Below are positions 1 through 15,585 of a DNA stretch of 54,463 bases, in pieces (the stretch's first letter is position 1; each line of letters begins with the position of its first letter). The DNA comes from Clostridia bacterium (lineage in GTDB: Bacteria; Bacillota; Clostridia; Christensenellales; Aristaeellaceae): the NCBI GenBank assembly GCA_017396845.1, contig JAFQKQ010000024.1, forward strand, positions 1 through 54,463, read 5' to 3'. The notes below the pieces were generated by a model. It did not search any database and was not told the origin of the DNA. It worked only from the letters and a program-made list of their open reading frames with translations. The position numbers and the translations under genes are program-made.

Positions 1-450
1 CTGAGGCTGATTAAGAAGCTGATCGCGAAATACAACCTGACCGCCATATACATCACCCACGACCTGGGCGTAGTGGCAAACGTCGCCGAGCGAATCGCCG
101 TCATGTACGCGGGCGATATCGTGGAAATCGGAACGAGCGAAGAGGTATTTTTTGATCCGCGCCATCCCTACACATGGGCGCTGCTTTCTTCGCTTCCGCA
201 GCTTGGCGTAAAGGGCGAGGATCTGTATTCCATTCAGGGTACGCCTCCCAATCTCTTTCAGGAAATCAAGGGCGATCCCTTTGCACCCAGAAACCCCAAT
301 GCTCTCAAAATCGACTTTGTAAAGCGCCCGCCGTTTTTTGATGTGAGTGAAACGCACAAGGCGCGCACATGGCTTCTGGATCCCAGAGCCCCCAAGGTCA
401 ACCCGCCCGAGAGCATATTGAAGCTTCGCGAAAAGGAGGCGGCAAAGTAA
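1..450 (+). CDS. oppD: Oligopeptide/dipeptide ABC transporter ATP-binding protein, OppD/DppD type (5' end outside window)
   Basis: C-terminal 149 residues of a peptide-importer ATPase; the reading frame is open from base 1, so the Walker A, signature and Walker B parts lie upstream. Visible are the H-loop ([16 protein letters not shown], residues about 17-32) and the tail typical of peptide and nickel ABC ATPases ([13 protein letters not shown]). The tail normally carries a Cys-rich stretch (GCpFxPRCp) that binds an iron-sulfur cluster in some DppD proteins; here it reads GDPFAPRNP with no cysteine. It would couple ATP hydrolysis to peptide uptake at the cytoplasmic face. The stop overlaps the ATG of the next gene by one base, so the two ATPases are translationally coupled, as in opp/dpp operons. 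The ligand cannot be told from this fragment. Confidence 0.9.
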
Positions 451-1370: not shown

Positions 1371-2506
1371 ATAGAAATGAAGCCGCCGCCCGCTGCTGGG
1401 CGGAAATCAATATGGGCGCGATGATTGAGAATTATAAAACCGCCCTTTCGTTTCTCTCATCCGAGACCACGCTCATTCCGGTACTCAAGGCAAACGCCTA
1501 CGGCTGCGGCGCCGAGTATGTTTCTCAAGCGCTCTATCATGAAGGCGCGCGCCTGTTTGCGGTTGCGAGCCTTCTGGAAGCCGTGGAAATCAAGCGTGCG
1601 CTTCCGACAGATGCGGACGTGCTGGTTCTGGGACTTGTCTCCTTGCCGGAGCTTCCCCGCGCAATTCATGAGAACCTGGTTCTGACAGGCTTTTCCGAAA
1701 AGAATCTTCGTGAAATTTCAAAATGCGCCCTTGAGCTTCATAAGGAAGCAAGGGTTCATTTGAAGGTGGACACCGGCCTTCACCGCCTCGGATTTTCGCC
1801 CGATGAAACGGATGCGCTCGTTTGTTCGGCGCTGCTTCCGGGAATTCATGCGGAAGGGCTTTACACTCATCTCGCACTCAGAAACCGCGAGGAGGACGAC
1901 AGGCAGTTTGCGCATCTTGAAAATGCCCGAATGGCGCTTGAAAACGCGGGGGTGGAGATCCCCATGCTTCATGCCTGCGACTCCATCGGCATGGTGCGCT
2001 ATCCTGACAGGCATTACGGCGCTGTCCGCGCGGGTGCATGGCTGTATGGCAACTGCCCCTACCGCTACGAGCATCCGGAAAAATGCCGCGAAGTAATATC
2101 GATCAAATGCCGCGTCGCGCAGATCCGCACAGTTGCCGCCGGCTCCTGCGTGGGATACGATGACGAACACCCGCTTGAAAGGGAAACGCGCGTAGCAACG
2201 CTTTCCGCCGGATATGTAGACGGCTTTCCGAGGCTCAATAACAAGGGCGAAGTGCTGATCAATGGCAAGCGCGCCCGCGTTCTGGGGCTGGTATGCATGG
2301 ATCAGATGATGGTGGATGTAACGGACATCCCCGAGGCGACGGAAGGTGATGAAGCGACGCTGCTCGGAAACGGCATCGGCGTAATTGAATACGCGGCTGC
2401 GGCGGGTCTCAATCGAAATGAAGCCTTTTCCAGAATCGGACGCAGAATACCGAGAATCTATCATAATGAAGGACAGGTACTGAAAATTCAGGCGGATATT
2501 GAATAA
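1367..2506 (+). CDS. alr: Alanine racemase, PLP-dependent
   Basis: 379 residues, a normal length for Alr. The PLP lysine is K41 in VLKANAYG, the second catalytic base is Y264 in VGYDDEH, and the C-terminal domain carries [10 protein letters not shown] (about 280) and [11 protein letters not shown] (about 309). It interconverts L- and D-alanine for peptidoglycan and acts in the cytoplasm. The gene is the last of a peptide-importer operon, coupled to oppF by an ATGA overlap, and is followed by a strong terminator. The linkage suggests handling of imported alanine-containing peptides, but that is inference; the enzyme may equally be the cell's housekeeping racemase. Specificity for another amino acid such as serine cannot be excluded from the motifs alone. 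Confidence 0.9.
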
Positions 2507-2531
2507 AAACCAGATAAACCCAAAAATCAAG

Positions 2532-2571
2532 GGGGCTGCTGCAGAATGTTTGCTTCTGCGGCAGCCCCTTT
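2532..2571. terminator. Bidirectional hairpin terminator between alr and the GH1 gene
   Basis: 15-bp stem 2532-2546 / 2554-2568 with one G-T type mismatch and a 7-nt loop. Flanked by TTT on the plus side and by an A-rich stretch (2515-2530) that gives a U-rich tail on the minus strand. It lies between two convergent genes, so it can end both transcripts. Confidence 0.85.
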
Positions 2572-2580
2572 GAAAACATA

Positions 2581-3906
2581 TTATCCTTCGTTCATGACCT
2601 TGAGGATAAAATCGCGATACCAGTAGGCGCTTTTTTTCCATGTGCGCTCCATGGTCTCGAAATTGGTGTGGATGAGGCCGTATTTGGATTCATAACCTGC
2701 GCTCCACTCAAAATTATCCATGAGTGACCAGAGATAATAACCGCGCACATCGATACCCTCGCCAAGCAATTCGTCAACGGATTTCAGCGCCTTATCGATA
2801 TATGCGATACGCTCGTCATCGTGGATCATGCCGTCGGAAGCGGGCGTCTCATTTTTTCCTGAGAATCCGTTCTCCGTCACATACACAGGGATATTCAGCT
2901 TATAGGAAGCCTTTATGAATTTTAGTATTTTGCCGAGATTCTCGGGATGAGATTGATGCTGTATGTAGAAATTACCGCCGTTTTCACCCGATGTCTCCGC
3001 CTGTTTCCTTACGCCCACGGTGAGCGTATTGTAATAATTCATGCCGTAGAAATCAATGGGCAGATTGGTAAGCCGAAAGTCTTCGTCATACATGATGGGC
3101 AGCGTGCCCTCATGGTAGAATTTATCGAGGATATATTTGCTGTAGCCCTGGCCCAGCAGACGGTCGGTATAGAACTTCCAGTTCTCCTCGTCCTCATCCT
3201 TCGCCAGCGCAATATCCTCAGGAGAATCGGTGCGGGGGAAACGCTTCCAGATATCAATGACCACGCCGATCTTTCCCTTTGCGCCGGATGCGCGGAATGC
3301 TTCAACGCCTGCGCCGGAAGCGGTCATTACATTGTGACGCGCCTGATTTCCCCACGCCTTGTCCTTGTGACCGGGGGCAAAGAATCCCAGTCCATAACCG
3401 ACATATGTAGCGATAGGCTCGTTGATCGTTACCCAGTATGGCACCGTGCCGCCGAATTCGCGGAACATCTTATCGGCATACTCGCTGAACCAGTATTGAC
3501 TGTCGCGGTTTACCCAGCCGCCCTTTTCCTCAAGCGCCTGCGGAAGATCCCAGTGATAGAGCGTTACGTTGGGTGCGATGCCCGCCTCCAGCAGTTTATC
3601 GAAGCAGCGCTTATAATAATCCACGCCCTTTTGATTGAGCGCGCCTGTGCCCTTGGGCAGCACGCGGCCCCATGAGATGGACATACGGTAGCTGTTTATG
3701 CCCAAATCTTTCATTTGCTTGAGGTCATCGTCAAACATTGTGTAGCTCTGACATGCGGCTGACGGCTTTGCGCCGCCCTTTATCTTGCCCGGTTTGTCCG
3801 CGAAAGCGTCCCAGATGCTCGCGCCGCGTCCATCCGCAAAACCGCCGCCTTCGATCTGTGCTGCTGCGGTGGCTACGCCAAACAGGAAATCTTTTTTGAA
3901 ATTCAT
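2581..3906 (-). CDS. Glycoside hydrolase family 1 beta-glucosidase
   Basis: 441 residues, typical GH1 length, with no signal peptide, so cytoplasmic. The acid/base is E163 in TINEP and the nucleophile E345 in VTENG; YHWDLPQAL (about 117) and the C-terminal WSLMDNFEWSAGY also fit GH1. It would hydrolyse beta-linked glucosides (for example cellobiose-type or aryl glucosides) brought in by a transporter. No clear phospho-sugar specificity signature was assessed, so 6-phospho-beta-glucosidase activity cannot be formally excluded, but no PTS genes are nearby. The ATG at 3906 has AGGAGG about 7 nt upstream. It is downstream of a beta-propeller gene on the same strand, 194 nt away, and has its own candidate -10 element. 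Confidence 0.92.
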   Translation of the reverse strand: MNFKKDFLFGVATAAAQIEGGGFADGRGASIWDAFADKPGKIKGGAKPSAACQSYTMFDDDLKQMKDLGINSYRMSISWGRVLPKGTGALNQKGVDYYKRCFDKLLEAGIAPNVTLYHWDLPQALEEKGGWVNRDSQYWFSEYADKMFREFGGTVPYWVTINEPIATYVGYGLGFFAPGHKDKAWGNQARHNVMTASGAGVEAFRASGAKGKIGVVIDIWKRFPRTDSPEDIALAKDEDEENWKFYTDRLLGQGYSKYILDKFYHEGTLPIMYDEDFRLTNLPIDFYGMNYYNTLTVGVRKQAETSGENGGNFYIQHQSHPENLGKILKFIKASYKLNIPVYVTENGFSGKNETPASDGMIHDDERIAYIDKALKSVDELLGEGIDVRGYYLWSLMDNFEWSAGYESKYGLIHTNFETMERTWKKSAYWYRDFILKVMNEG

Positions 3907-4100
3907 ATGCTTGCCTCCTCACAAAAATCCATTATTCATGGAAGCGGAAATTATAGATAAGAATAGCGCGCTTTGCGATGCCGGCTGCTGCCGTTTCGCA
4001 GCTGAATGAGGGGGCGGCTTTTGTCCTAAATATGCGGGATTTGGCGACAAAAACCGGAATTGCTTCGGTGAATCCGGAAAAAGGGGCAGACCCTGCGGGT
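3907..4100 (-). promoter_or_regulatory. Leader region of the GH1 gene with candidate -10 box and inverted repeat
   Basis: On the minus strand a TATAAT lies at 3955-3950, about 45 nt before the GH1 start; the hexamer 17 nt further up is poor (3 of 6). Upstream sits an 11-nt inverted repeat with one mismatch (4015-4025 and 4046-4056, CGGCTTTTGTC / GACAAAAACCG), which could be an operator or a weak terminator of the propeller gene. No coding sequence is seen in this gap. Confidence 0.4.
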
Positions 4101-5285
4101 TTACTCCTCGCTTCTCAGCGCATGCATTGCGTCTGTTACATCGAAGGTGTACATGCCTCTGAAGCCCTCGTAAACGGAGTCGATGGAGATCATTTTTCCG
4201 GTCGGAGACCATACGGGATGGAGGTCGCAGCGGATATCTATCGTTGGGTATGATGCGCAGCGGAAACGTCCAAGCAGGCCGCCTCTTCTCGTGACCGCGT
4301 CGTACAGATAGAGCTCGCGGCAGCCGTCGGCCTTGGGATAGCTGTCGTAGAGCAGATATTCGCGGTTGGGGGAATAGCTGATGTGGCCGTCGAACAGGAA
4401 AAACGACGGATCTACAGCTTTGCCGGTATGCGTTTGATCGGTAAGCTCGTAGAGCTGATTGCCCATATCGCCGAGCTCCAGACCCGATGAATGGAATGCG
4501 ATTACGCTTGGCGATACCCAGTAATAGTGGCTTGCGTAGGCGTAATCGGAAAGTACGAATACATCGCTTCCGTCGGTGTTTGCCGTGATGATAGCGCTTT
4601 TCCAGCCGCTGTTACTAAAGTTTCTCAAGAGGAATGCAAACCTTGTGCCGTCGGTATTGAAATTGATGTGGTTGATCATGATCTTCTGATCCTTGCCGCC
4701 GAAGAAGCCGCCGGTCAGATCCCAGAGTGTCTGAAGGGACAGGATCAGACGGAAGTTTCCCGTTTCGAGATCGATCAGATAGATACCGTCGTTTGACGGA
4801 TGGTTATCGTTTTTCCAATCGTCCGTTCGCCCCGCATAACCGTAGCCCGGACGGAAGTCGAACATGCGATCAAAGTTTATGCTGAGGGCATGCTTTCCGG
4901 TGGGGGAAACGTTTGCAATCGGGCGGTCGATCGTGCGCTCCTTGCCGGTTTTGAGGTTCTTGATCACGCACGCGTAGCCGCAGGCGTTGTTTTTGCGGGT
5001 ATTCCAGATCACGGTATCTTCCGAATTGGGGAGCCACTGTAAAAAGCATCCCTGCTGGAAGCACCAGGCGGTTGTCTCGGCAAATTTTTCCTTTTCGCCC
5101 GTTTTCAGATCGATTACATACAGTTCAGCAATATCATCCTTTTCGGGCAGGCGGTCCCAGAAGTTTACGCGCATGGCGAGATGGCGCGAACCGGTCGAGT
5201 CGAAAGCGGGAATATCGTAATAACCGAAAAACCACTGGCCGTCGTCAGGCGTAATGCGGACGGCTTTTGCCGGGAGCTGTTTCAT
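4101..5285 (-). CDS. Cytoplasmic beta-propeller protein, oligogalacturonate-lyase-like (PL22/TolB-type fold)
   Basis: 394 residues without signal peptide or membrane segment. Repeating blade-like units are visible, each with a strand pattern such as LYVIDLKTGEKEKF, VIKNLKTGKERTI, IYLIDLETGNFRL and LYLYDAVTRRGG, spaced as in WD40/TolB propellers. The overall pattern (DPSFFLFDGHISYSPNREYLLYDS reduced to its core DGHISYSP, and a late LHPVWSPTGKMI) resembles oligogalacturonate lyases of family PL22, which act on short unsaturated pectic oligomers in the cytoplasm. I cannot confirm the catalytic residues. The ATG at 5285 has AGGAGG 8 nt upstream. It follows a terminator that closes the thioredoxin operon and precedes the GH1 gene, so a role in oligosaccharide breakdown is plausible but inferred. 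Confidence 0.5.
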   Translation of the reverse strand: MKQLPAKAVRITPDDGQWFFGYYDIPAFDSTGSRHLAMRVNFWDRLPEKDDIAELYVIDLKTGEKEKFAETTAWCFQQGCFLQWLPNSEDTVIWNTRKNNACGYACVIKNLKTGKERTIDRPIANVSPTGKHALSINFDRMFDFRPGYGYAGRTDDWKNDNHPSNDGIYLIDLETGNFRLILSLQTLWDLTGGFFGGKDQKIMINHINFNTDGTRFAFLLRNFSNSGWKSAIITANTDGSDVFVLSDYAYASHYYWVSPSVIAFHSSGLELGDMGNQLYELTDQTHTGKAVDPSFFLFDGHISYSPNREYLLYDSYPKADGCRELYLYDAVTRRGGLLGRFRCASYPTIDIRCDLHPVWSPTGKMISIDSVYEGFRGMYTFDVTDAMHALRSEE

Positions 5286-5304
5286 ATCGCTTTCCTCCTG
5301 TGTG

Positions 5305-5342
5305 TAAATGAAATAAAGAAAGCCTGTGCATACAGACTTTCT
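5305..5342 (-). terminator. Terminator after the thioredoxin gene
   Basis: On the minus strand an 11-bp stem (5342-5332 / 5327-5317, one mismatch) with a 4-nt loop is followed by a T-rich tail (complement of 5316-5305). It lies 10 nt past the trxA stop and just ahead of the ribosome site of the propeller gene, so it could also act as an attenuator for that gene. Confidence 0.75.
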
Positions 5343-5351
5343 CCATGTGTG

Positions 5352-5660
5352 TTACAGATGCTTCTTGATCAGGTTTTCAAATGCGGGCTTTCCCTGCATG
5401 CCGATCAAGCGGTCTGCTTCTTTGCCGTCCTTAAACAGGATCAGCGTGGGAATGCTCATTACGCCCAGCTGAATGGCGGAATCGGGGTATTCGTCGATGT
5501 TGAGCTTTCCGAATCGCACGCTGCCCTGATAGGTTTCGCTTAATGCTTCCAGAATCGGCGCAGCCATGCGGCAAGGGCCGCACCAGGGCGCCCAGAAGTC
5601 GACGAGCGTGAGTCCGTTAAGGTTCTCGGGGCGAAGGCTGTCAGCGGTAAAAATTTCCAT
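5352..5660 (-). CDS. trxA: Thioredoxin
   Basis: 102 residues, standard thioredoxin size. The active site WCGPC is at residues 26-30, the cis-proline motif MSIPTLILF near 70, and the C-terminal helix follows. It reduces disulfides in cytoplasmic partners. The gene is the last of a five-gene operon; AGGAGG upstream of its ATG sits in the 12-nt gap behind the RseC-like gene. That immediate neighbour is a membrane protein with a redox-type Cys cluster, so the two could exchange electrons, which is inference. No thioredoxin reductase gene is present in the window. Confidence 0.95.
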   Translation of the reverse strand: MEIFTADSLRPENLNGLTLVDFWAPWCGPCRMAAPILEALSETYQGSVRFGKLNIDEYPDSAIQLGVMSIPTLILFKDGKEADRLIGMQGKPAFENLIKKHL

Positions 5661-5672
5661 GGGATCCTCCTG

Positions 5673-6077
5673 TCAATCGATATAGTCGATATTTTTGCGC
5701 GCGCTGCAGGCGAATGTGCCTTTGGTGCGGCGCTTTTTTTCTGTGAGAACAATATACAATGAGCCGGCGGCGAGAAAGGCGAGCGATGTGAGCGCCTGCG
5801 CCCATTCCGCTTTGAAAAGCGCCCAGCCGATCAAAAGACCGATAAAGAGAGATACAAGCGGTATGCCGTAGGCGATCATGGTTGCGCGGGTGAGCATTCT
5901 GTCGCCGATTTCGAGCGTTACGGTATCGCCTTCTTTATAGTCGCCCTTTGGAAGCGGGTAGTGCATGATTGCCTTTTGTCCCATCTGACACGCGCGGCAT
6001 TCTCCGCAGGCTTCCGTGCGTGTGATTTCCGCCATCAGCTTTCCGCGAACGGATACGACAATGGCATCTCGCTTCAA
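5673..6077 (-). CDS. RseC/SoxR-reducing-system family membrane protein
   Basis: 134 residues. An N-terminal soluble part holds the Cys cluster C24-GE-C27-RA-C30 within EACGECRAC, followed by a beta-rich segment (GDTVTLEIGD) and two membrane helices (about residues 68-86 and 91-110), then a basic tail with one more Cys. This matches the RseC family (PF04246), proteins linked in other bacteria to reduction of SoxR and to the Rnf complex. The start overlaps the end of the IspD-like gene by 4 nt (ATGA), so it belongs to the lipid-headgroup-like operon, with thioredoxin directly behind it. Its function in this setting is unknown. Confidence 0.8.
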   Translation of the reverse strand: MKRDAIVVSVRGKLMAEITRTEACGECRACQMGQKAIMHYPLPKGDYKEGDTVTLEIGDRMLTRATMIAYGIPLVSLFIGLLIGWALFKAEWAQALTSLAFLAAGSLYIVLTEKKRRTKGTFACSARKNIDYID

Positions 6078-6727
6078 TTCCGATTCCTCCTTTTTCTAAG
6101 AAGGGATGCAATATACTGCTTTTCCCAGGGGTAGGTGAGCTTCAGGTTCTCGGGGAAATCGTAATATTTCATGAGCCGAATCTCCTCGGGCAGCTGCTGC
6201 GCGACCTCTGTAAGCGGGCTTTCGGAATCAAAATGCGCATACAGCAGCGGAAAATCGTAGCTTTCAGGCGACTGCATAAGGTAGTAGCGGCTTCTGTCCA
6301 CCGCATGCATGTCCAAACAGCCCAGACTGTCCGTAATCGCCTGCGCAGTGGTTACGGCGTGATAGCCCTCCGATATCAGGCGGATGTAAGTATCGATCAA
6401 TTCTCCCGTTACAAGCGGACGAACCGCGTCCATTATTATTACGCGTTCGCAGGCTGCTTCATTCAGATACATAAGGCCGTTTTTCAGCGTTTCATTCCGT
6501 TTTTCGCCGGCAGGAACGAATACAACCGAAGGATAGAGCGTCTGAAGGCGCTTTACGGCCTTTGACGGGTGAGCGGCGATTACGATGGTATCTATGCTTT
6601 TGGCGTTCATAGCCGCCTCGATTGCGTATTCAATCACCATTTTTCCGAGAATCTTGTGGTATTGCTTGGGAAGCGCGCTTTGAAACCGCTGTCCGCTTCC
6701 GCCGGAGAGTATTAAAGCTGCGTTCAT
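6074..6727 (-). CDS. IspD/TarI-like cytidylyltransferase
   Basis: 217 residues of the IspD nucleotidyltransferase superfamily. Visible are the N-terminal nucleotide loop LSGGSGQRF followed by PKQY (about residues 7-23), the metal/cytidine motif MDAVRPLVT (about 99-107), and QSPESYDF (about 152). It should transfer CMP from CTP to a phosphorylated alcohol, giving a CDP-alcohol. In true IspD the substrate is methylerythritol 4-phosphate, in TarI ribitol 5-phosphate. The N-terminal loop has S where IspD usually has A, and the usual C-terminal TDE motif is altered (LTEVAQQ). The gene overlaps both neighbours by 4 nt, and the upstream one is a CDP-alcohol phosphotransferase, so a role in making a CDP-alcohol for lipid headgroup transfer is favoured over isoprenoid synthesis. 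Confidence 0.75.
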   Translation of the reverse strand: MNAALILSGGSGQRFQSALPKQYHKILGKMVIEYAIEAAMNAKSIDTIVIAAHPSKAVKRLQTLYPSVVFVPAGEKRNETLKNGLMYLNEAACERVIIMDAVRPLVTGELIDTYIRLISEGYHAVTTAQAITDSLGCLDMHAVDRSRYYLMQSPESYDFPLLYAHFDSESPLTEVAQQLPEEIRLMKYYDFPENLKLTYPWEKQYIASLLRKRRNRN

Positions 6728-8820
6728 GGAGCGGCTTCCTCCGATGTGTTTTCTGCATGATCGTCTGTTTTCAAATTTTCTTCTGCGAATGACGTCTCCG
6801 CTGCTTCTGCTGCTTCCGTCTCTTCGCGCTTTTCATCGCTGTTTCCCGCTTCCGTTTCGGGGCGGGTGCCGCTCTTGATCAGCATTGCGCCGACGCCGAG
6901 CGCCACGTAGAAGATTTCGCGGATTCGGGAGAGGAGGGAGGCGGTTACGCCGAAGGAGGCGGAAACGCCCGTCCAGCCGAGGCTGAGCGCGAGACCGAAT
7001 TCGCGCGAGCCCACCTGCATTGGCACAAAGAACATCAGATTTCCGATCAGGGACGCACAGCCCAATGCGATCACGCATTCGGGATAGGTTATCTTAACGC
7101 CCAATATCAGGAATATGATGTAGAATTCCACTGCTTCCATCAGGCGGGCGGCGTATTCCATGCAGACGGTTGCCCAGAAATCGCGCTTTCTGGCGTGAAA
7201 AGCCATCATTTCACGGTCAACGGTTTCAAGGCTTTCGCGGTTTTTATCGATCAGATTGGAAAAGACGCGGCCAATAAGCGGTATGCGGGAAAGAAGCGAA
7301 AGGAACGGAACCGCAAGCCCCTTGCTTCCGCTTCTGAAAAATGCAAAGCATATGTACACGCCCAGCATCGCAACAAGAATTGCAACGAGGGGCGCAAGTA
7401 TCCCCTTTGAGAATCCGAAGAAAATCAGGAATAATACGGCCGATGTGAGCCAGTACATGATGTGCGAAAAGGTATGCATCACGGTGAACGTGAGCGTGGT
7501 GGCGGTTGCCTTTTCTGTGCCGATTTTCGGCTTCAACTCCATAATTCTGTAGGGTTCTCCGCCGATCATGCCGACCGGAGTCACATGGTTGAGCGCGAAG
7601 CCGGATATCACCACTTTAAACATATGAACAAAGGATATGCGCTTTTTGTCCTCGCCCATAATCTGAAGGTAGGCAAATGTATGAACCGCGTATATCGCCG
7701 CCCAGAGCCCGATCAGCGACGGAAGCCATATCGGCATGGAATGCAGTATTGCCTGCCAGTCAATCCGACCAAGGTCGGTTTTGGCCAGCATGAATATCAC
7801 GCCGACGACGCCGATGATAAAGAATACCACGGGCATGCGTTTCTTCTTTTCTATGGGCGTTTCGCTTCCGGGAAGGCGGCAGTGCACAAGCACGTTTTCC
7901 GCGATGATTTCATAGCGCGAACGCATGAAGCGGCACAGAAAGCCGAACACGAAGAGCTCAATCGGAAAATACAGAAGCGGCGCGCCGATCAGCACGCAGC
8001 CGAAGAGCGTGTAGGCGCGGGCGTTGAAGGTGAGAATATTGGTGAGCTGAATGTATTTAAGACTCTCCTTGCGGTACTGCTCCCGGGCTTCCTTTTTCTG
8101 CTCCGGCTCCGCTTGTTCATATCCCTTAATCAGCCTTTGGAAATTCGGCGTGGCAAGCTCCTGCATGAAGGTATACATGCCGTAGAAGAACAGATAGATT
8201 TTCTGAAAGCGCGCGCCTGTCCAGGGGAGAGAGGCGCGGGATTTTGCAATCTCTCTGGAGCTGTCCAATTCGCTTGCGCTTTTGCCCTTCAGAAAGAACA
8301 GATGGATATTTCTTAAGTAATCCGCGATCATGCACTGGCGTTCATGCCCGAATATCGCGCATATGAATACGACTACCCAGATCCAGCCGCCCCAGGGCTT
8401 ACCGCCGGAGAAGGGAATCGCATGATCCATGAGCCTAAGGCACAGTGCGCAGTATATGGCGACATACCATACGCTGGTCGAGAGCCCGTCGAGGATGCGG
8501 CCAAGGGTGGACTTGTTGCCGGTCAGGCGTGCAAGCTGCCCGTCGGTGGAATCAAGGATATTGGCAAATATTACAAGCAGTACGCCGATCAGATTGATGC
8601 TGAAGTTTTCGGGATAAAACAATAGGCCGCCGGTAAAGCCGATGCCCATGCTGAGCAGCGTGACCATATTGGGGGACCAACCGATCTTCATGAAAAAGCG
8701 AGCCCACAGATACCCCAGGGGCTTTGTAAATATCCTGTCGAAAAACTCTTCGGTATCTTCCGACTTATAGGCCGCGCGGATGTCCGTGCGCATCCTTTGA
8801 ATGGATTCCCGGATGGCCAT
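6724..8820 (-). CDS. CDP-alcohol phosphatidyltransferase fused to a flippase-like (LPG_synthase_TM) membrane domain
   Basis: 698 residues. The N-terminal half (about 1-310) is a CDP-alcohol phosphatidyltransferase with the signature D90-x2-D93-G94-x2-A97-R98-x8-G107-x3-D111. The fourth signature Asp, expected at 115, is Thr (LDGLSTSV), so the usual catalytic base is missing. The C-terminal half (about 330-645) is a multi-helix domain of the LPG_synthase_TM / YbhN type with HVTPVGMIGGEPYR and QVGSREFGLALSLGW. A 45-residue acidic tail follows. The N-half would transfer a phospho-alcohol from a CDP-alcohol to a lipid acceptor; the C-half resembles proteins that move lipids across the membrane. 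Neighbours supply a kinase (21-nt gap) and a cytidylyltransferase (4-nt overlap). Substrate unknown. Confidence 0.88.
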   Translation of the reverse strand: MAIRESIQRMRTDIRAAYKSEDTEEFFDRIFTKPLGYLWARFFMKIGWSPNMVTLLSMGIGFTGGLLFYPENFSINLIGVLLVIFANILDSTDGQLARLTGNKSTLGRILDGLSTSVWYVAIYCALCLRLMDHAIPFSGGKPWGGWIWVVVFICAIFGHERQCMIADYLRNIHLFFLKGKSASELDSSREIAKSRASLPWTGARFQKIYLFFYGMYTFMQELATPNFQRLIKGYEQAEPEQKKEAREQYRKESLKYIQLTNILTFNARAYTLFGCVLIGAPLLYFPIELFVFGFLCRFMRSRYEIIAENVLVHCRLPGSETPIEKKKRMPVVFFIIGVVGVIFMLAKTDLGRIDWQAILHSMPIWLPSLIGLWAAIYAVHTFAYLQIMGEDKKRISFVHMFKVVISGFALNHVTPVGMIGGEPYRIMELKPKIGTEKATATTLTFTVMHTFSHIMYWLTSAVLFLIFFGFSKGILAPLVAILVAMLGVYICFAFFRSGSKGLAVPFLSLLSRIPLIGRVFSNLIDKNRESLETVDREMMAFHARKRDFWATVCMEYAARLMEAVEFYIIFLILGVKITYPECVIALGCASLIGNLMFFVPMQVGSREFGLALSLGWTGVSASFGVTASLLSRIREIFYVALGVGAMLIKSGTRPETEAGNSDEKREETEAAEAAETSFAEENLKTDDHAENTSEEAAP

Positions 8821-8841
8821 TTTTGTTTTCCTCCCACAAGC

Positions 8842-9798
8842 CTATTTGCCTGAAAGCGCGTTTCTGTATTGCCAGGCGCGTTTTGCCCAGTCTATGGAAT
8901 AACAGATCTCCGGATGGGTATTGCCTTCGATAAACGTATTGCAGGCGCGAAGCGTGGTGTCGATGGAGAAGGCGGTCAGACATTTATCGGCGCTTGTTCC
9001 TTCGGGCATTATACGGAAAAGAAGGGACATGAATTCGTCATTTGTCAAAAGCGTATGCTTCACGACTGTTCCCAGATATCTGGACATTTCAAATTCGAAG
9101 GGCGCGATATAGCCGAGCGGATCGATCAGCACGCAACTTCCGCCGTTGACCAGCATGTTGCATTCGTGTGCGTCGCCGTGAATAATGTATCTTGCATCGC
9201 ATTTAAATGTTTCAATCGCGGCAAAAGACGCCTCAATGCTCGGAAGGAGCGCTTCAAGTGCCGCTTCTCCCGATTGATTGATGACTCTTTTTGCGTTTTC
9301 GGCTACCGAATACAGCACGTCTTCATACGCAGGGAACGCGGTACATCCGGAAGGGGCTTCCTTTTTCTGCGCATACAGCGATGAAAATACGGCTTCCTTT
9401 GCCGCGTGCGCGCATTTGCCGTCTTCGGGAATGTATTTCATAAGCAATGCGCCCAGAGATTCGTCTACCTCATACAAAGGGCACATTTCCTGATATGGAA
9501 GCGTTTGATAGCACAATATTTCTGTCTTCAGGCGCGGTGAAAACGGCGGTATGACTTTTACTGCCGCATCGCCGTATTTCGGGCTGGAAGCATAGAGTAT
9601 GGTTCCGAAGCGCGAAGTATTCTCGGCGCCAAAGAACGTAAGCTGCCATTTGTCGGCGATGCGGTTGATTTCGCCTTCCAAGGCCCGGATCCATTCGTGG
9701 GCCTGGTCGGGAAACTGCTGCATCAGATAGCTTACCGTATTCTCGGAAATCAAAGGTATATCTATTTTCACGTAAAAGAGACCTTTCGCGGCGCACAT
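8842..9798 (-). CDS. APH-fold kinase, streptomycin-6-kinase / hydroxyurea-kinase-like
   Basis: 318 residues. The kinase-fold markers are the nucleotide lysine K81 in AAVKVI, the catalytic loop IIHGDAHECN (D209, H211, N214) and the metal motif LIDPLG (D226), as in APH(6)-type phosphotransferases (PF04655). It should phosphorylate a small hydroxylated compound with ATP. The context, directly ahead of a CDP-alcohol transferase and a cytidylyltransferase, argues for activation of an alcohol headgroup rather than antibiotic resistance. Start: the ATG at 9798 has GGAGG only 3 nt away; a GTG at 9771 has AAAGG about 10 nt upstream and gives a 309-residue protein starting VKIDIPL, so the start is uncertain. 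A near-consensus promoter precedes it. Confidence 0.75.
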   Translation of the reverse strand: MCAAKGLFYVKIDIPLISENTVSYLMQQFPDQAHEWIRALEGEINRIADKWQLTFFGAENTSRFGTILYASSPKYGDAAVKVIPPFSPRLKTEILCYQTLPYQEMCPLYEVDESLGALLMKYIPEDGKCAHAAKEAVFSSLYAQKKEAPSGCTAFPAYEDVLYSVAENAKRVINQSGEAALEALLPSIEASFAAIETFKCDARYIIHGDAHECNMLVNGGSCVLIDPLGYIAPFEFEMSRYLGTVVKHTLLTNDEFMSLLFRIMPEGTSADKCLTAFSIDTTLRACNTFIEGNTHPEICYSIDWAKRAWQYRNALSGK

Positions 9799-9827
9799 GC
9801 GCCTCCAGAATAAAAATAATACAACTT

Positions 9828-9856
9828 ATTATAGCATTGCTTTGCGGAATCTGCAA
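9828..9856 (-). promoter_or_regulatory. SigA-type promoter of the kinase-transferase-cytidylyltransferase operon
   Basis: Minus strand: -35 TTGCAG (9856-9851), 17-nt spacer, -10 TATAAT (9833-9828). The predicted transcript starts about 20-25 nt before the ATG at 9798. It is the only strong promoter seen ahead of the five genes ending at 5352. Confidence 0.8.
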
Positions 9857-10001
9857 GCGCGAACGCAGACGCATGCGCGGATAAAAGATGATGATTTTTC
9901 TTTATTTGTTAAGCGGGATATTGTATAAGGCGCTGAAAATGCCGTTCGTGACCGGCGCTTTTAGGATGCGTGCGAAAGTTACGAAACTGCTCGCGCTGCG
10001 C

Positions 10002-10030
10002 TTGTTATGCAGGCGTTATATTGGTATAAT
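10002..10030 (+). promoter_or_regulatory. SigA-type promoter of the GH9 gene
   Basis: -35 TTGTTA (10002-10007), 17-nt spacer, -10 TATAAT (10025-10030). The predicted start near 10037 leaves about 35 nt of leader before the ATG at 10072, which helps choose that start over the upstream ATG at 10045. It is divergent from the kinase operon promoter; the sequence between the two (9857-10001) shows no gene. Confidence 0.7.
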
Positions 10031-10071
10031 ATATCCAGCGGAATATGAACGGAAACGGGGGAAAGCGGTAT

Positions 10072-11610
10072 ATGAATATACTTATCAATCAGATCGGATA
10101 TATGCCTGAGGCCAGAAAAGTCGCAGCGGTCAGGGGCGGACTTTTCCAAAATGCGGAGATTTTGAATGAAAAGGATCAGGCGGTGCTTTGCGTGCCGGTT
10201 TCAAGCGAAAAGACAAGCATATGGGGCGACGAGGTTTCGTATGCGGATTTTTCAGAGCTCCATGTACCCGGAAAATATGTGGTGAAGATCGGAGACGAAA
10301 GATCGTATCCATTTGAAATCGCCAAAGACGTGTACGGCAAATGCCTTACGGCGCTTGTCGATATGTTTTACTATCAGAGATGCGGATGTGATCTTTCAAG
10401 CGATATCGGCGCGTTTAAGCATTCCGCGTGCCATATGACGAAGGCCAGAGTATACGGTACGCAGGAATACAGAGAGGTTTCCGGCGGCTGGCACGATGCG
10501 GGCGATTTCGGAAGGTATATCGTGCCCGCAGCCAAGGCGGTATGCGACCTTTTGATTGCGTATGAATGGAACAAAAAGGCGTTCGAAAAAGCCGGAATTA
10601 CCGAGATCATCGGGGAAACGAAATGGGAACTTATGTGGATGCTTAAAATGCAGCGCGAGGACGGCGGCGTATACCACAAGGCCACCTGCGCCTCCTTCTG
10701 CGATATGATCATGCCGGATGAGGAAAAAGAAGAGATCATTCTTTCGCCCGTATCCACTACTGCAACCGGAGATTTTGCCGCGTGCATGGCGATGGCGTAC
10801 CGCTTCTATAAAGATGCGGACGGGGCGTTCGCGCTTGAAATGAAAAACGCAGCCGTGAAGGCGTGGGAGTTTCTCCAAAATAACGGCGCGATTCTTTTCA
10901 AAAACCCGGCGGGCATTACGACCGGCGAATACGGCGACGACTGCGATCAGGACGAAAGACTGTGGGCGGCGATCGAGCTTTTCAGATTGACGGGAGAAAA
11001 GAAATATGAAGAAGCCGCGCTTTCCATGATTGGAGATTTCGACTTTACGCTTGCGCCGCTCGGCTGGGCGGATGTTTCGGGATATGCGGCAATTGAGGGC
11101 ATGGATCTGGAAGGCGAGCTTGGCGAAAAATGCAGACAGTGGGTGAAAACGGCTGCCGAGAGCCGGTATAAGGGTATCAACGCCTACGGAATCGCGATGA
11201 CGGACAGCCTTCCCTGGGGCAGCAATATGGATGTATCCGACGACGGCATGCTGTTTTACTGCGCGTGGAAGCTGACGGGGGATGAGAAATACCGGGAAGC
11301 GATGCATAAGCAGCTGAACTATATACTGGGCGTAAATCCGATGGGGTATTCGTATGTTTCGGGCTTCGGCACGAAGTGCATGCGCTATCCGCATCACCGT
11401 CCGAGCATTGCAACCGGCGTTTGTCAGCCGGGAATGCTCTCCGGAGGCCCTGCCAGCGGCATGATGGATCCCGTGGCGAAGGAATTCCTTCAGGGAAAGA
11501 GCGCAGGAAAGAGCTATATCGACGACCATGGAAGCTATTCGACGAACGAAATCTGTGTGTACTGGAATTCGCCGCTGGTCGCTCTGATGGCGGCCGTCAA
11601 GGCGGAATAA
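10072..11610 (+). CDS. Intracellular glycoside hydrolase family 9 enzyme
   Basis: 512 residues from the ATG at 10072. A short N-terminal Ig-like (CelD_N) domain (about 1-85, beginning NILINQIGY) precedes the alpha/alpha-barrel. The GH9 catalytic base region is GGWHDAGDFGRY (D142, D145) and the acid is E493 in YSTNEICVYW. There is no signal peptide, so it acts inside the cell; cytoplasmic GH9 enzymes known elsewhere are exo-acting beta-glucosidases or glucosaminidases rather than secreted cellulases. The exact sugar cannot be read from the sequence. A G-rich stretch near 10056-10061 may serve as ribosome site. The next gene, a UroD-like protein, begins 31 nt downstream with GGAGG, so the two are likely co-transcribed. 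Confidence 0.88.
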   Translation: MNILINQIGYMPEARKVAAVRGGLFQNAEILNEKDQAVLCVPVSSEKTSIWGDEVSYADFSELHVPGKYVVKIGDERSYPFEIAKDVYGKCLTALVDMFYYQRCGCDLSSDIGAFKHSACHMTKARVYGTQEYREVSGGWHDAGDFGRYIVPAAKAVCDLLIAYEWNKKAFEKAGITEIIGETKWELMWMLKMQREDGGVYHKATCASFCDMIMPDEEKEEIILSPVSTTATGDFAACMAMAYRFYKDADGAFALEMKNAAVKAWEFLQNNGAILFKNPAGITTGEYGDDCDQDERLWAAIELFRLTGEKKYEEAALSMIGDFDFTLAPLGWADVSGYAAIEGMDLEGELGEKCRQWVKTAAESRYKGINAYGIAMTDSLPWGSNMDVSDDGMLFYCAWKLTGDEKYREAMHKQLNYILGVNPMGYSYVSGFGTKCMRYPHHRPSIATGVCQPGMLSGGPASGMMDPVAKEFLQGKSAGKSYIDDHGSYSTNEICVYWNSPLVALMAAVKAE

Positions 11611-11641
11611 ACGCATTCAACTGATCGGAGGAAACGCGCCT

Positions 11642-12751
11642 ATGAAGTGGAATCGGCAGGAGTTTATTGATCTGCTTACGTTCAATCATCCGCCGCGCGA
11701 AATGTTTGTAGAGCTCATGGGTCCGCTCGTCGGTCTGGAGGACGAATGGAGAAGACAGGGCGCGTCGGAGGGCGAAATCGCGCTTACCGATTTCGGTTTC
11801 GATTATGTGCCCGTATGTACCGTTGGAAATATGGACGCGATTCACGGGTTTCCGGAAACGGTTATCGAGGAAACCGGAGAGTATGTGATCCGGCGGGATT
11901 ACCTCGGCAGGACTTCCAAGCTTATAAAAGGGTATGCCAGCATACCGCTGCCGATGGATTTTCCGGTAAAGTGCATGGATGATTGGCGCAAGATCAAGCA
12001 TATGTTTGAATACGACGAATCCCGTGTGGATACGGACGCGCTTTTGCAGGCGAAAAAGCTTCAGTCGCAGGGCGTATTGATTCGCGCGTCGATTCCCGGC
12101 GGATTTGATCTTCCGAGAGAATTGATGGGCGACGAGATGGCGTGCGTATGCGGGTATGAGGATCCTGAGCTGCTGAACGACATTCTCGATACGGCAGGGA
12201 TTACCTGTGAGCGCGTGATTGACAGGATTACAAAGGTCGTTTCGATTGACTATCTGTTCGTTCATGAAGATATGGCGGGAAAGAGCGGGCCGCTTTGGGG
12301 GCCGAAGCAGGTGCTTGAGTTCGTAAAGCCGTATTACAGAGGCGCGTGGGATCTGGCTTCCAGCAGAGGAACCAAGATTTTTTCGCAGGACAGCGACGGC
12401 AATATGAATGCGGTCATCGACGCGTTTATCGAATGCGGCATAAACGTTTTCTATCCGTGCGAACCTGCAGGGAACATGGATATCGTTGAGCTGCGGAAAA
12501 AATACGGGAGTAAATTCGCTGTGATGGGCGGTATTGATAAGCATGTGCTGAGAAAATCCAAGGAGGACATCGACCGTGAGCTTGAATACAAGCTTCAGCC
12601 CTGCATGCGTAGTGGCGGAACGGTCTTCGGCCTTGATCACAGAATTCCAAACGGCACGCCGCTGAACGCCTACCGGTATTACGTGAATCAAGCGCGGGAA
12701 ATGCTGGGGATTGCGGAATTTGAAAAGGGCTGGGGGAGAATGGCGTTTTAG
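11642..12751 (+). CDS. UroD-like protein, DSDG subgroup (first of three in the window)
   Basis: 369 residues of the uroporphyrinogen decarboxylase / MtaA-CmuA superfamily TIM barrel. The segment after the sixth strand reads KIFSQDSDGNM (D250, D252) and is followed by FYPCEPAGNMD and FAVMGGIDK. In MtaA-type cobalamin methyltransferases the matching position carries the zinc ligands H-x-C; these are absent, so a zinc thiol-methyl chemistry is unlikely by homology. No corrinoid protein gene is near. It sits in a two-gene unit behind an intracellular GH9 enzyme, so a role in sugar metabolism is suggested by context only. GGAGG precedes the ATG. The function of this subgroup is not known to me. 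Confidence 0.8.
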   Translation: MKWNRQEFIDLLTFNHPPREMFVELMGPLVGLEDEWRRQGASEGEIALTDFGFDYVPVCTVGNMDAIHGFPETVIEETGEYVIRRDYLGRTSKLIKGYASIPLPMDFPVKCMDDWRKIKHMFEYDESRVDTDALLQAKKLQSQGVLIRASIPGGFDLPRELMGDEMACVCGYEDPELLNDILDTAGITCERVIDRITKVVSIDYLFVHEDMAGKSGPLWGPKQVLEFVKPYYRGAWDLASSRGTKIFSQDSDGNMNAVIDAFIECGINVFYPCEPAGNMDIVELRKKYGSKFAVMGGIDKHVLRKSKEDIDRELEYKLQPCMRSGGTVFGLDHRIPNGTPLNAYRYYVNQAREMLGIAEFEKGWGRMAF

Positions 12752-12872
12752 TGAGGAACGCAGAGCAGGGAATTGGAAGTGCGGAGCATGGATTAGAGCG
12801 GTTCCGTTTTTCACGCTTAAAGCATTCCGGCAAGAGGAAACGTTAAACAGTGCGCATTACACGTATCCAAAG

Positions 12873-12915
12873 ACAAACAAGGCTTACGCAGAGAAAACGC
12901 GTAAGCCTTGTTTGT
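12873..12915. terminator. Bidirectional terminator with a perfect 17-bp stem
   Basis: 12873-12889 and 12899-12915 are exact reverse complements with a 9-nt loop; the stem ends are A/T-rich, giving a U-rich 3' side in both directions. It separates the GH9/UroD-like unit from the convergent liv operon. The 120 nt before it (12752-12872) hold no recognisable gene. Confidence 0.85.
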
Positions 12916-12943
12916 TATATTCAATTCTCTTGATTCCGTTACG

Positions 12944-13651
12944 TCAGCCGCCCAGATACGCCGCTCGTACGCGGTCGTCTTCCAGAACCTGCTTTGCGCT
13001 TCCGGACATGGTGATCGAGCCGGTTCCGAGAACATAGGCGCGATCGGCGATGGAGAGCGCCATCTGCGCGTTCTGTTCTACCAGAAGGATGGTGGAGCCT
13101 GCGGCGTGCAGTTCCCGGATGATGTCGAAAATCTGCTCGACCAGTATCGGTGCTAGACCCATCGACGGCTCGTCCAGCATCAAAAGCTTGGGCTTGCTCA
13201 TCAGTGCGCGGCCCATGGCCAGCATCTGCTGTTCGCCGCCGGAGAGCGTGCCCGCTACCTGCTTTTCGCGTTCTTTCAGGCGCGGAAAGCGTTCGAATAT
13301 GTTTTTCAGAGAGGAGGCAACCTCGCCGGCAGGGCGGGTATACGCGCCCATTTCGAGGTTTTCGCGCACGGTCATCTGCTGGAATACGCGGCGGCCCTCC
13401 GGACAAAGCGCCATGCCAAGGGAAACCACTCTGCTGGCCTGCATCTGGGTGATGTTTCTGTCGCGGAACAGGATTCTTCCGGAGCGGGGCTTCAATAGAC
13501 CGGAAACGGTGTTGAGCGTGGTGGATTTTCCTGCGCCGTTTGCGCCGATCAGGGTTACGATTTCGCCTTCGTTTACCTCAAAGGAGACGTCTTTGATGGC
13601 GTGGATGTTTCCGTAGTATACGTGGATGTTTTCAACTCTCAAAAGACTCAT
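12944..13651 (-). CDS. livF: Branched-chain amino acid-type ABC transporter ATP-binding protein LivF
   Basis: 235 residues, standard LivF length. Walker A GANGAGKST (about 35), signature LSGGEQQMLAMGRAL (about 137), Walker B LLMLDEPSMGL and the H-loop LVEQNAQ are all visible. It pairs with LivG to power uptake. It is the last gene of livJ-H-M-G-F on this strand, 2 nt behind livG. Confidence 0.96.
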   Translation of the reverse strand: MSLLRVENIHVYYGNIHAIKDVSFEVNEGEIVTLIGANGAGKSTTLNTVSGLLKPRSGRILFRDRNITQMQASRVVSLGMALCPEGRRVFQQMTVRENLEMGAYTRPAGEVASSLKNIFERFPRLKEREKQVAGTLSGGEQQMLAMGRALMSKPKLLMLDEPSMGLAPILVEQIFDIIRELHAAGSTILLVEQNAQMALSIADRAYVLGTGSITMSGSAKQVLEDDRVRAAYLGG

Positions 13652-13653
13652 CG

Positions 13654-14502
13654 TTAGCCCTCCTTCTTTTTTCCGAGGTATGCCTCGATGACGGTCGGGT
13701 TCGACTGAATCTCTGACGCTGTGCCCTTGGCGATGATGCGGCCGTAGTTGAGCACGCAGATACCCTCGCAGATGCCCATGACCAGGTTCATATCGTGCTC
13801 AATAAGCATGATGGCAATCTGGAACTGGTCGCGGATTTTGGTGATGTTATCCATCAGTTCTTCCGTCTCGTGCGGGTTCATGCCGGCGGCGGGTTCGTCC
13901 AGAAGTAGGATCTTCGGATTGGTTGCCAGCGCTCTGACGATTTCGAGCCTGCGCTGCGCGCCGTAGGGAAGGGAACCTGCTTTTGCGGAGGCCATGTCCT
14001 GCATATCGAATATGGACAGAAGCTCAAGCGCTTTTTCGTGCTGCTTCTTCTCCTGCTTCCAGTAGCCGGGCAGGCGGAGAATACCGGCGAACATATTGTA
14101 GGGAATCTGATTGTGAAGTCCGATTCGAACGTTGTCTTCCACCGACATATTGCCGAACAGGCGGATGTTCTGGGAGGTTCTGGCTACGCCTAAGCGGTTG
14201 GCCTGAACGGTATTCATGCCGCTGGTTTCCTTGCCGTCGATCAGAACCGTGCCGGTGGTGGGCTGATAGACCTTGGTCAGAAGGTTGAACACCGTCGTTT
14301 TGCCCGCGCCGTTGGGGCCGATAAGGCCGGCGATTTCGGTGGATCCGATGGTAAGGTTGAAATCCTCAACCGCTTTCAGACCGCCGAATTCAATGCCCAG
14401 ATGGCGGGTTTCCAGCACCGGGCGCTTGTTGATATCGCGCTCGGGAACGATGCTGAAGCTCGGGTAGGCGACCATCTTGGTGGTGGATTTGCGCTGCGTC
14501 AT
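13654..14502 (-). CDS. livG: Branched-chain amino acid-type ABC transporter ATP-binding protein LivG
   Basis: 282 residues. Walker A GPNGAGKTT (about 58), Walker B ILLLDEPAAGMNP and the H-loop MLIEHDMNLV are clear, and the Liv-family C-terminal ending YLGKKK is present. The signature region reads SLPYGAQRRLEIVRAL, the usual form for LivG. An N-terminal extension of about 27 residues precedes the ABC domain. Its ATG overlaps the livM stop by 4 nt. Confidence 0.96.
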   Translation of the reverse strand: MTQRKSTTKMVAYPSFSIVPERDINKRPVLETRHLGIEFGGLKAVEDFNLTIGSTEIAGLIGPNGAGKTTVFNLLTKVYQPTTGTVLIDGKETSGMNTVQANRLGVARTSQNIRLFGNMSVEDNVRIGLHNQIPYNMFAGILRLPGYWKQEKKQHEKALELLSIFDMQDMASAKAGSLPYGAQRRLEIVRALATNPKILLLDEPAAGMNPHETEELMDNITKIRDQFQIAIMLIEHDMNLVMGICEGICVLNYGRIIAKGTASEIQSNPTVIEAYLGKKKEG

Positions 14503-15575: not shown

Positions 15576-15585
15576 TTCCGTCACC

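What the first reader, a model, noticed from the sequence alone, without database searches (positions are those of the whole stretch)
5352..9856. Kinase + IspD-like cytidylyltransferase + CDP-alcohol transferase/flippase fusion: a possible unknown lipid-headgroup pathway
Seen: five genes behind one near-consensus promoter, with 4-nt overlaps at two junctions. Known families: an APH-fold kinase, an IspD-type cytidylyltransferase and a CDP-alcohol phosphatidyltransferase would carry out, in order, phosphorylation of an alcohol, CDP activation and transfer to a lipid, the logic of the Kennedy pathway. The transferase is fused to a flippase-like domain, which could move the product across the membrane. 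Inference: the operon builds an uncharacterised phospholipid or glycerol-type headgroup. The kinase and cytidylyltransferase are both from families with unrelated textbook jobs (drug phosphorylation, isoprenoid synthesis), so automatic annotation would miss it.
Basis: partly seen in the sequence, partly recalled or inferred. Interest (0 to 1): 0.78.

Follow-up and report, generated by a model that had tools for sequence, protein, structure and literature searches.

The report
Likely bacterial Kennedy-type lipid headgroup operon
A bacterium carries a small gene set that probably phosphorylates an unknown alcohol, activates it with CTP, attaches it to a membrane lipid and moves the lipid across the membrane; the parts come from enzyme families better known for other jobs, and which lipid it makes is still unknown.

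Summary
The five genes are real. The core is three: a kinase, a CDP-alcohol transferase fused to an MprF-type flippase domain, and an IspD-like cytidylyltransferase. This set recurs in 5 of the 7 family genomes that hold the transferase; in the other two neither kinase nor this IspD was found. RseC and thioredoxin go with it only in the window's genus.

The IspD-like enzyme is not the isoprenoid one: the genome has a separate IspDF and a TarI-like copy, and a tree splits them off. In four genomes of the order a relative of the kinase and of this IspD form one protein, twice directly beside LicD. Unfused relatives of the transferase/flippase pair sit beside aminoethylphosphonate genes. Both support "activate with CTP, then transfer".

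Unexpected: the transferase lacks the fourth motif Asp (Thr/Ser in 7 of 9). A sister species without kinase and IspD also changed His159 and Asp167, otherwise conserved.

Headgroup, acceptor and activity are untested. New variant of Kennedy/Lic/Pnt logic.

The parts
8842..9798 (-). APH/RIO-like small-molecule kinase (318 aa), first gene of the module
   Evidence: ORF; HGDAHxxN and IDP motifs and K81 invariant in 5 of 5 orthologues; weak APH and APH_6_hur matches; homologous to the C-terminal half of IspD-kinase fusions (E 1.9e-35)
6724..8820 (-). Fusion protein (698 aa): N-terminal CDP-alcohol phosphotransferase + C-terminal MprF-type flippase-like domain
   Evidence: both Pfam domains in 6 of 6 fused homologues; the two halves are separate adjacent genes in G038, G171 and G773
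7891..8820 (-). CDP-alcohol phosphotransferase region (residues 1-310): D90, D93, G94, A97, R98, G107, D111 of the motif present, fourth Asp position is Thr115; conserved His159 and Asp167
   Evidence: Alignment A8 of 9 homologues; leave-one-out; coordinates worked out from residue numbers
6895..7818 (-). LPG_synthase_TM (flippase-like) domain, residues 335-642
   Evidence: Pfam PF03706 E 1.2e-22
6074..6727 (-). IspD-like cytidylyltransferase (217 aa), one of three IspD-type genes over the Pfam cut-off in the genome, in the clade of IspD-kinase fusions
   Evidence: (below the IspD and ribitol-enzyme cut-offs)
5673..6077 (-). RseC/MucC family membrane protein (134 aa, TTG start), seen with the module only in the window's genus
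   Evidence: present in L005 and L006, no match in the g11 loci
5352..5660 (-). Thioredoxin (102 aa), seen with the module only in the window's genus
   Evidence: (TIGR01068 over cut-off)
9828..9856 (-). Putative promoter: TTGCAG - 17 nt - TATAAT with TG one base before the -10
   Evidence: Read by eye; not reported by the consensus scan, the -35 being weak
5313..5346 (-). Terminator-like hairpin after the thioredoxin gene
   Evidence: consensus match only

Best explanation
A three-enzyme CDP-activation pathway ending at the membrane. The kinase phosphorylates a small alcohol X (inferred). The IspD-like enzyme couples X-phosphate to CTP, giving CDP-X (inferred from family, conserved residues and kinase-IspD fusions). 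The CDP-alcohol transferase domain moves phospho-X from CDP-X to a lipid acceptor, most simply diacylglycerol as in the Kennedy pathway (inferred). Its fused MprF-type domain carries the finished lipid to the outer leaflet (inferred). Co-conservation, gene fusions and motif states are shown; no activity is. X is not identified. A polyol or cyclitol is slightly favoured over choline or ethanolamine, because the profile of IspD-kinase fusions scores best against a ribitol-phosphate enzyme and the kinases lean to APH(6) and methylthioribose kinase, but this is weak.
For: Kinase-transferase-IspD order in window, L005, L066, L067, L068, with an ATGA overlap of transferase and IspD in 5 of 5. In a survey of 300 family genomes the transferase occurs in 7 at E<1e-90. 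In a second survey of 300 (no new handles were given, so apparently the same genomes) kinase orthologues are in 5 of these 7, and the only other matches are 4 more distant kinases. The module's IspD is at the locus of the same 5; in G770 and G773 neither it nor the kinase was found. IspD-kinase fusions in G790, G1027, G098, G191; kinase half hhalign E 1.9e-35; a profile of the four, holding no window sequence, finds the window kinase at 1.2e-42. LicD next to the fusion with an ATGA overlap in G098 and G191. Unfused transferase/flippase pair in G038 beside PEP mutase (itself carrying a PF01467 cytidylyltransferase-like domain) and AEP transaminase, both over cut-off, and a separate nucleotidyltransferase; in G171 beside a nucleotidyltransferase and a phnS2-like binding protein that is under its cut-off. 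Kinase motifs, IspD residues and seven of eight CDP-AP motif residues intact. Separate IspD-type genes elsewhere in the genome.
Against: The transferase lacks the fourth Asp of its motif in 7 of 9 homologues. G770/L006 keeps the fusion, and G773 the unfused pair, without kinase and this IspD (draft genomes, 93% and 75% complete). The pairing of kinase and IspD is not strict outside the module: IspDs of the same clade stand with no kinase match in the fetched stretch in G275 and G156, and G1031 has the kinase but no IspD match to the fusion profile (62% complete). No biosynthesis or uptake gene for X was recognised in the operon. LicD contexts show that the kinase-IspD product need not end on a lipid. 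Predicted structures were too poor to use. The genomes are drafts and the system is rare (fusion profile at E<=1e-40: 1 of 299 genomes of the phylum, the window's own).
Confidence: 0.7

Rival explanations
1. The transferase domain is catalytically dead or only a lipid-binding platform. The fusion protein is in effect a flippase or scramblase, and CDP-X from kinase and IspD is used by another transferase elsewhere in the cell.
For: Fourth motif Asp absent in 7 of 9. In MtPgsA1 this Asp is a metal ligand and the presumed base (PMC6506517 passages); in frog CHPT1 alanine at any of the four leaves under 20% activity (PMC10182977 passages). L006 keeps the fusion without kinase and IspD.
Against: D90, D93, G94, A97, R98, G107 and D111 are invariant in 9 of 9, which a dead enzyme would not need. 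In human CEPT1 alanine at the fourth Asp leaves about 15% activity and a His is proposed as base (PMC10156783 passages). The one member with His159 and Asp167 changed is one of the two without kinase and IspD; the other, G773/L069, keeps both residues. The overlap of the transferase and IspD genes is conserved.
Confidence: 0.17
2. The product decorates a glycan or teichoic-acid-like polymer rather than a lipid, as in the Lic and TarI systems, with a lipid-linked sugar as acceptor.
For: IspD-kinase fusions sit beside LicD in G098 and G191, and LicD lies near a solo IspD in G156. The genome has a TarI-like gene next to a protein that I read by eye as TagF-like.
Against: In the module the transferase is a CDP-alcohol phosphotransferase, a family whose known acceptors are lipids or small alcohols (recalled), fused to a lipid-flippase-like domain. 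I recognised no LicD or glycosyltransferase by eye among the ORFs of window 1-16000; no family search for them was run.
Confidence: 0.1
3. The IspD-like protein is a second copy of the isoprenoid enzyme (CDP-methylerythritol) and its place here is incidental.
For: Pfam IspD family; closest solved structures of the single sequence are isoprenoid IspDs.
Against: Scores 104.8 bits against an IspD cut-off of 181.3 and 68.5 against 166 for the ribitol model. An IspDF-like protein is on C106. The tree puts the window protein with IspD-kinase fusions, split from IspDF and TarI by a 100/100 branch.
Confidence: 0.03

Closest known systems
CDP-choline/CDP-ethanolamine (Kennedy) pathway, including the bacterial version in Treponema denticola (LicAC enzymes + 1,2-DAG cholinephosphotransferase)
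   Same: Kinase, cytidylyltransferase and CDP-alcohol phosphotransferase in the same logical order (PMC6805115 passages)
   Different: Kinase is weakly APH(6)/RIO-like and not shown to be a choline kinase; the cytidylyltransferase is IspD-type, not LicC-type; the transferase is fused to a flippase-like domain and lacks the fourth Asp; substrate unknown
Pnt phosphonate tailoring (PEP mutase, PntC, CMP-aminoethylphosphonate)
   Same: Relatives of this transferase/flippase pair sit beside AEP genes or an AEP-type transporter (G038, G171); same CMP-activation logic (PMC6697681 section 6)
   Different: No PEP mutase match in the window genome (73% complete); kinase + IspD in place of PEP mutase + PntC
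LicABCD phosphocholine and TarI / ISPD-FKTN-FKRP ribitol-phosphate systems
   Same: An IspD- or LicC-type enzyme makes a CDP-alcohol used by LicD-type transferases, and bacterial ISPD-LicD and ISPD-reductase fusions are noted there (PMC4873967 passages); IspD-kinase fusions sit beside LicD in relatives
   Different: The window has a CDP-alcohol phosphotransferase, not LicD; a kinase, not a reductase, supplies the phosphate ester
MprF (bifunctional lysyl-phosphatidylglycerol synthase and flippase)
   Same: Lipid-headgroup enzyme and flippase-type domain in one protein (PMC5898192 passages)
   Different: The enzyme half is a CDP-alcohol phosphotransferase and stands first; in MprF the Lys-tRNA-dependent synthase half stands last

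Membership tests
CDP-alcohol phosphotransferases | Full motif D1xxD2GxxAR...GxxxD3xxxD4 | tested here: not met
   D1, D2, G, A, R, G, D3 present in 9 of 9; the D4 position is Thr or Ser in 7 of 9 including the window, Asp in L034 and L035. Homology to the family stands; the canonical motif is incomplete.
CDP-alcohol phosphotransferases | Profile match over the curated cut-off | tested here: met
   36.6 bits against cut-off 22; 6 of 6 fused members match at E 0.001
MprF-type flippase domain (COG0392 / PF03706) | Profile match over the curated cut-off | tested here: met
   81.3 bits against 33.4
MprF-type flippase domain (COG0392 / PF03706) | Lipid translocation | not testable with these tools
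   Needs an experiment
IspD (MEP cytidylyltransferase) | Equivalog score, and being the genome's only or main IspD | tested here: not met
   104.8 of 181.3 bits; two other genes score higher on the Pfam model, one read as IspDF
TarI ribitol-5-phosphate cytidylyltransferase | Subfamily score and clade | tested here: not met
   68.5 of 166 bits; groups apart from the G000 TarI-like gene
APH / choline-kinase superfamily | Fold and catalytic HGDxHxxN and D motifs | tested here: inconclusive
   Motifs invariant in 5 of 5; APH matches 4 of 5 and APH_6_hur 3 of 5 members at E 1, the window under cut-off; fold model too poor, pLDDT 49
Kennedy-type pathway | Kinase + cytidylyltransferase + CDP-alcohol transferase co-encoded and co-conserved | tested here: met
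   5 of 7 family genomes with the transferase; in the other two neither partner was found
Kennedy-type pathway | Choline or ethanolamine headgroup, diacylglycerol acceptor | not testable with these tools
   No substrate evidence from sequence
Phosphonolipid (AEP) pathway | PEP mutase in the genome | tested here: not met
   0 of 1 genomes with PF13714 at E 0.001, genome 73% complete

The most novel reading that the evidence does not exclude
A new class of bacterial membrane phospholipid: a polyol or cyclitol headgroup, phosphorylated by an APH-type kinase and CMP-activated by a third, non-isoprenoid IspD clade, is put on diacylglycerol by a CDP-alcohol phosphotransferase that works without the fourth motif Asp, with His159 and Asp167 taking over as base pair, and is exported at once by its own fused MprF-type flippase.
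Probability: 0.3. Interest if true: 0.78.

Novelty: new variant of a known kind. Interest (0 to 1): 0.6.

Why it matters
It would add a further route, besides LicA/LicC and Pnt, by which bacteria make CDP- or CMP-activated headgroups, and give a function to a kinase family and an IspD clade that name-based annotation would call drug kinase and isoprenoid enzyme. The loss in L006, with its changes at His159 and Asp167, and the Asp-to-Thr/Ser exchange give direct handles on how CDP-alcohol transferases choose their catalytic base, a point on which bacterial and eukaryotic structure papers differ. Four searches of the open-access library listed no paper that, by title and start of abstract, describes this combination; one search listed 15 of 28 matches, and subscription papers and preprints are not held.

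Tried and rejected
Kinase model mean pLDDT 49.1, fusion 34.1. Both were judged unusable; no fold search was run.

A 'relaxed transferase' reading of L006 was tested by leave-one-out on the six fused proteins. Breaks at columns invariant in the other five, transferase region / flippase region: L006 25 of 144 / 9 of 123; window 14 of 133 / 9 of 123; L005 5 of 124 / 3 of 117; L066 4 of 123 / 6 of 120; L067 2 of 121 / 3 of 117; L068 3 of 122 / 4 of 118. Fisher p for L006 0.016, for the window protein 0.39. On the nine-row alignment, which has no flippase part, L006 breaks 7 of 54 (H159R and D167A among them), but the more distant L069 breaks 10 of 57, so this second test does not single out L006. 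dN, transferase / flippase: L005-L006 0.197 / 0.142; window-L005 0.204 / 0.272; window-L006 0.286 / 0.309; dS 0.98-2.0, near saturation. Mild relaxation at most, not a pseudogene.

A phosphonolipid reading of the window was rejected for want of PEP mutase. Substrate guessing by nearest solved structure was weak. Module-IspD profile: best hit 3f1c, then isoprenoid and ribitol enzymes mixed; single window IspD: isoprenoid IspDs first. IspD-kinase fusion profile: ribitol enzyme 4jis first. Kinase profile: 2pyw (deposited as uncharacterized protein; recalled by me as a methylthioribose kinase) E 7e-4, and methylthioribose kinase 2olc E 0.2. Nearest solved structures of the transferase include inositol, serine and choline/ethanolamine enzymes alike, so the acceptor cannot be read off. 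The flippase half found no solved structure at E 1.

A plasmid search with an IspD-kinase fusion gave 15 of 72,556 records, none covering more than 58% of the query and all starting in the IspD half. The genome-contig scan found 2 loci. Class survey with A1 at E<=1e-15: only the window's own genome, 1 of 391. Phylum survey with A10 at E<=1e-40: likewise 1 of 299. Order survey with the fusion protein: 23 of 396 genomes at E<=0.001, of which 4 (G000, G038, G171, G205) match strongly over both halves, G205 across contig ends; the other 19 are weaker partial matches, best 1.8e-12, not followed. Family survey: 3 of the 10 hits (G803, G1010, G1028; E 4e-12 to 9e-14, short open frames) were not counted as orthologues. 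Order survey with the first two IspD-kinase fusions (A9) at E<=1e-40: 8 of 297 genomes, of which 2 (G098, G191) are full fusions; the rest, the window included, match the IspD half.
Full report
WHAT IS THERE. Five minus-strand genes lie head to tail between 9798 and 5352: kinase, transferase/flippase fusion, IspD-like cytidylyltransferase, RseC/MucC protein and thioredoxin. Two junctions overlap by 4 nt. An extended -10 promoter with a weak -35 lies at 9856-9828 (read by eye; not reported by the scan), and a terminator-like hairpin at 5346-5313 follows the last gene. The window is one whole contig of a 2.79 Mb draft genome, 73% complete.

WHICH GENES BELONG TOGETHER. Two relatives came from the named collection: L005, Clostridiales MAG SIG361, with all five genes; and L006, Clostridia MAG RGIG6213 from sheep rectum, with the fusion, RseC and thioredoxin only. 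Surveys of whole genomes placed both in the window's genus (as G805 and G770) and gave three members of another genus, g11 (G970, G938, G909), where kinase, fusion and IspD stand in the same order; neither RseC nor thioredoxin is matched in the stretches fetched there. The ATGA overlap between fusion and IspD genes is conserved in 5 of 5. So the unit is three genes. Among 300 genomes of the family the transferase is found in 7 at E below 1e-90. In a second survey of 300, apparently the same genomes, kinase orthologues are in 5 of these 7, and the other matches are 4 more distant kinases. The module's IspD is at the locus of the same five. In L006/G770 no third IspD over cut-off and no kinase were found; in G773 no kinase, and only a 53-bit IspD match against 233 bits for the window protein on the same profile. 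G770 is 93% and G773 75% complete, so absence in G773 is weak evidence.

NOT THE ISOPRENOID ENZYME. The genome has two further IspD-type genes over the Pfam cut-off: one on C106 in a frame that I read by eye as IspDF, and a TarI-like one on C68 beside a protein that I read as TagF-like. The window protein scores far under both model cut-offs. In a tree of 25 IspD-type proteins it lies in an 11-row set with the four IspD-kinase fusions and two solo proteins (support 98/97), and the wider 16-row set is split from IspDF and TarI by a 100/100 branch. Residues invariant across the module's IspDs, the IspDF and the TarI-like copy include the GxGxR, K, DxxRP, R and NxKxT positions, so catalysis looks possible. 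That these are the catalytic positions of E. coli IspD is recalled, not tested.

INDEPENDENT SUPPORT FOR ACTIVATE-THEN-TRANSFER. (a) In G790, G1027, G098 and G191 an IspD domain and a kinase domain form one protein of 514-535 aa. The C-terminal half is homologous to the window kinase (hhalign E 1.9e-35; a profile of the four fusions finds the window kinase at 1.2e-42). (b) In G098 and G191 the gene next to the fusion, overlapping by ATGA, is LicD (PF04991 at 6e-48 and 5.7e-47). [quoted passage not shown] (c) Unfused relatives of the window's transferase and flippase domains are neighbours in G038 and G171, and in G205 across contig ends. In G038 they stand beside PEP mutase, which carries a PF01467 cytidylyltransferase-like domain, and aminoethylphosphonate transaminase, both over cut-off, and a separate nucleotidyltransferase that I call LicC-like by eye. 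In G171 they stand beside a nucleotidyltransferase and an aminoethylphosphonate-type binding protein that is under its cut-off (157.6 of 392.75 bits). This is the Pnt logic of PMC6697681 (outline with abstract, section 6 and passages seen). Thus the transferase/flippase pair is found with two different donor makers, and the kinase-IspD pair with two different transferases. Against a strict pairing: IspDs of the same clade stand without a kinase match in the fetched stretches of G275 and G156, and G1031 has a kinase but no IspD match to the fusion profile.

THE ODD ACTIVE SITE. CDP-alcohol transferases carry DxxDGxxAR...GxxxDxxxD. In nine homologues the first seven positions are invariant, but the last Asp is Thr or Ser in seven, Asp only in the two unfused ones from G038 and G171. 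In MtPgsA1 this residue (D93) binds metal and is the presumed base (PMC6506517, passages). In human CEPT1 alanine there leaves about 15% activity and His155 or His197 is proposed as base (PMC10156783, passages). In frog CHPT1 any of the four Asp to Ala falls under 20% and Glu129/His133 are proposed (PMC10182977, passages). The window family has a His159, conserved in 8 of 9, 48 residues after the third Asp; CEPT1 His197 is 43 after D154, which I take as its third Asp. Whether they correspond is inference, not an alignment result.

A NATURAL EXPERIMENT. L006 keeps the fusion gene, but the 361 bases before it on the contig give no kinase match and about 54 bases separate it from RseC. It is the only one of nine with His159 and Asp167 changed. 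In the six fused proteins, breaks at otherwise invariant columns are enriched in its transferase half (25 of 144 against 9 of 123, p 0.016; window protein 14 of 133 against 9 of 123, p 0.39). On the nine-row alignment the distant L069 breaks more columns (10 of 57) than L006 (7 of 54) while keeping His159 and Asp167. The gene is intact and still under constraint. The simplest reading is that kinase and IspD were lost as a pair and the transferase half is under relaxed selection while the flippase half is kept. One genome cannot prove this.

HOW IT LIKELY WORKS. Alcohol X is phosphorylated by the kinase, turned to CDP-X by the IspD-like enzyme, transferred to a lipid by the transferase, and moved outward by the fused domain. 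Shown: homology, co-conservation, fusion, motif states. Inferred: every reaction. X and the acceptor are unknown. The kinase family's weak lean to APH(6) and methylthioribose kinase and the ribitol-enzyme hit of the fused relatives point faintly to a polyol or cyclitol.

VERDICT. New variant of a known kind.

Noticed in passing
L083:776-2383 (-), L084:6361-7950 (-), L096:9156-10700 (-), L097:8163-9713 (+): IspD-kinase fusion proteins, two of them (L096, L097) beside LicD in what look like polysaccharide clusters: an apparent one-protein CDP-alcohol synthase of unknown substrate.
   Followed up: partly
L035:1312-7575, L034:156-6981: Transferase and flippase genes beside aminoethylphosphonate genes (L035) or an AEP-type transporter (L034) and a nucleotidyltransferase: candidate phosphonolipid synthesis and export loci.
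   Followed up: partly
L070:9151-14195, L072:9771-17075: Different, short CDP-alcohol transferases next to a fused nucleotidyltransferase-PEP mutase, an alcohol-dehydrogenase-like protein and a phosphonopyruvate-decarboxylase-like protein: looks like a hydroxyethylphosphonate tailoring cluster (names by eye and blastp).
   Followed up: no
L097:15405-16691, L101:2617-3906, L100:6991-8157: IspD domain joined to a further domain, a short-chain dehydrogenase in L097 and L101 by Pfam (L100 not scanned). As in CDP-ribitol synthases (the comparison is recalled). The three form a sister clade to the IspD-kinase group.
   Followed up: partly
L082:6419-8790: In G1031 a phosphatidylinositol-phosphate-synthase-like gene (under cut-off), a PHP-like gene (named by eye) and a solo kinase of this family stand in a row; no IspD partner was matched by the A10 profile. 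It hints that the kinase may serve inositol lipids.
   Followed up: partly
L069:2854-4958: Unfused transferase (Thr at the fourth Asp position) and flippase genes in G773, with no kinase or IspD match on the 12.3 kb contig.
   Followed up: partly
window 5673-6077: An RseC/MucC-family gene tied to a thioredoxin gene behind the module in all three members of the genus found; RseC is usually discussed with proteobacterial sigma-E or SoxR reduction (recalled), so its role here is unclear.
   Followed up: no
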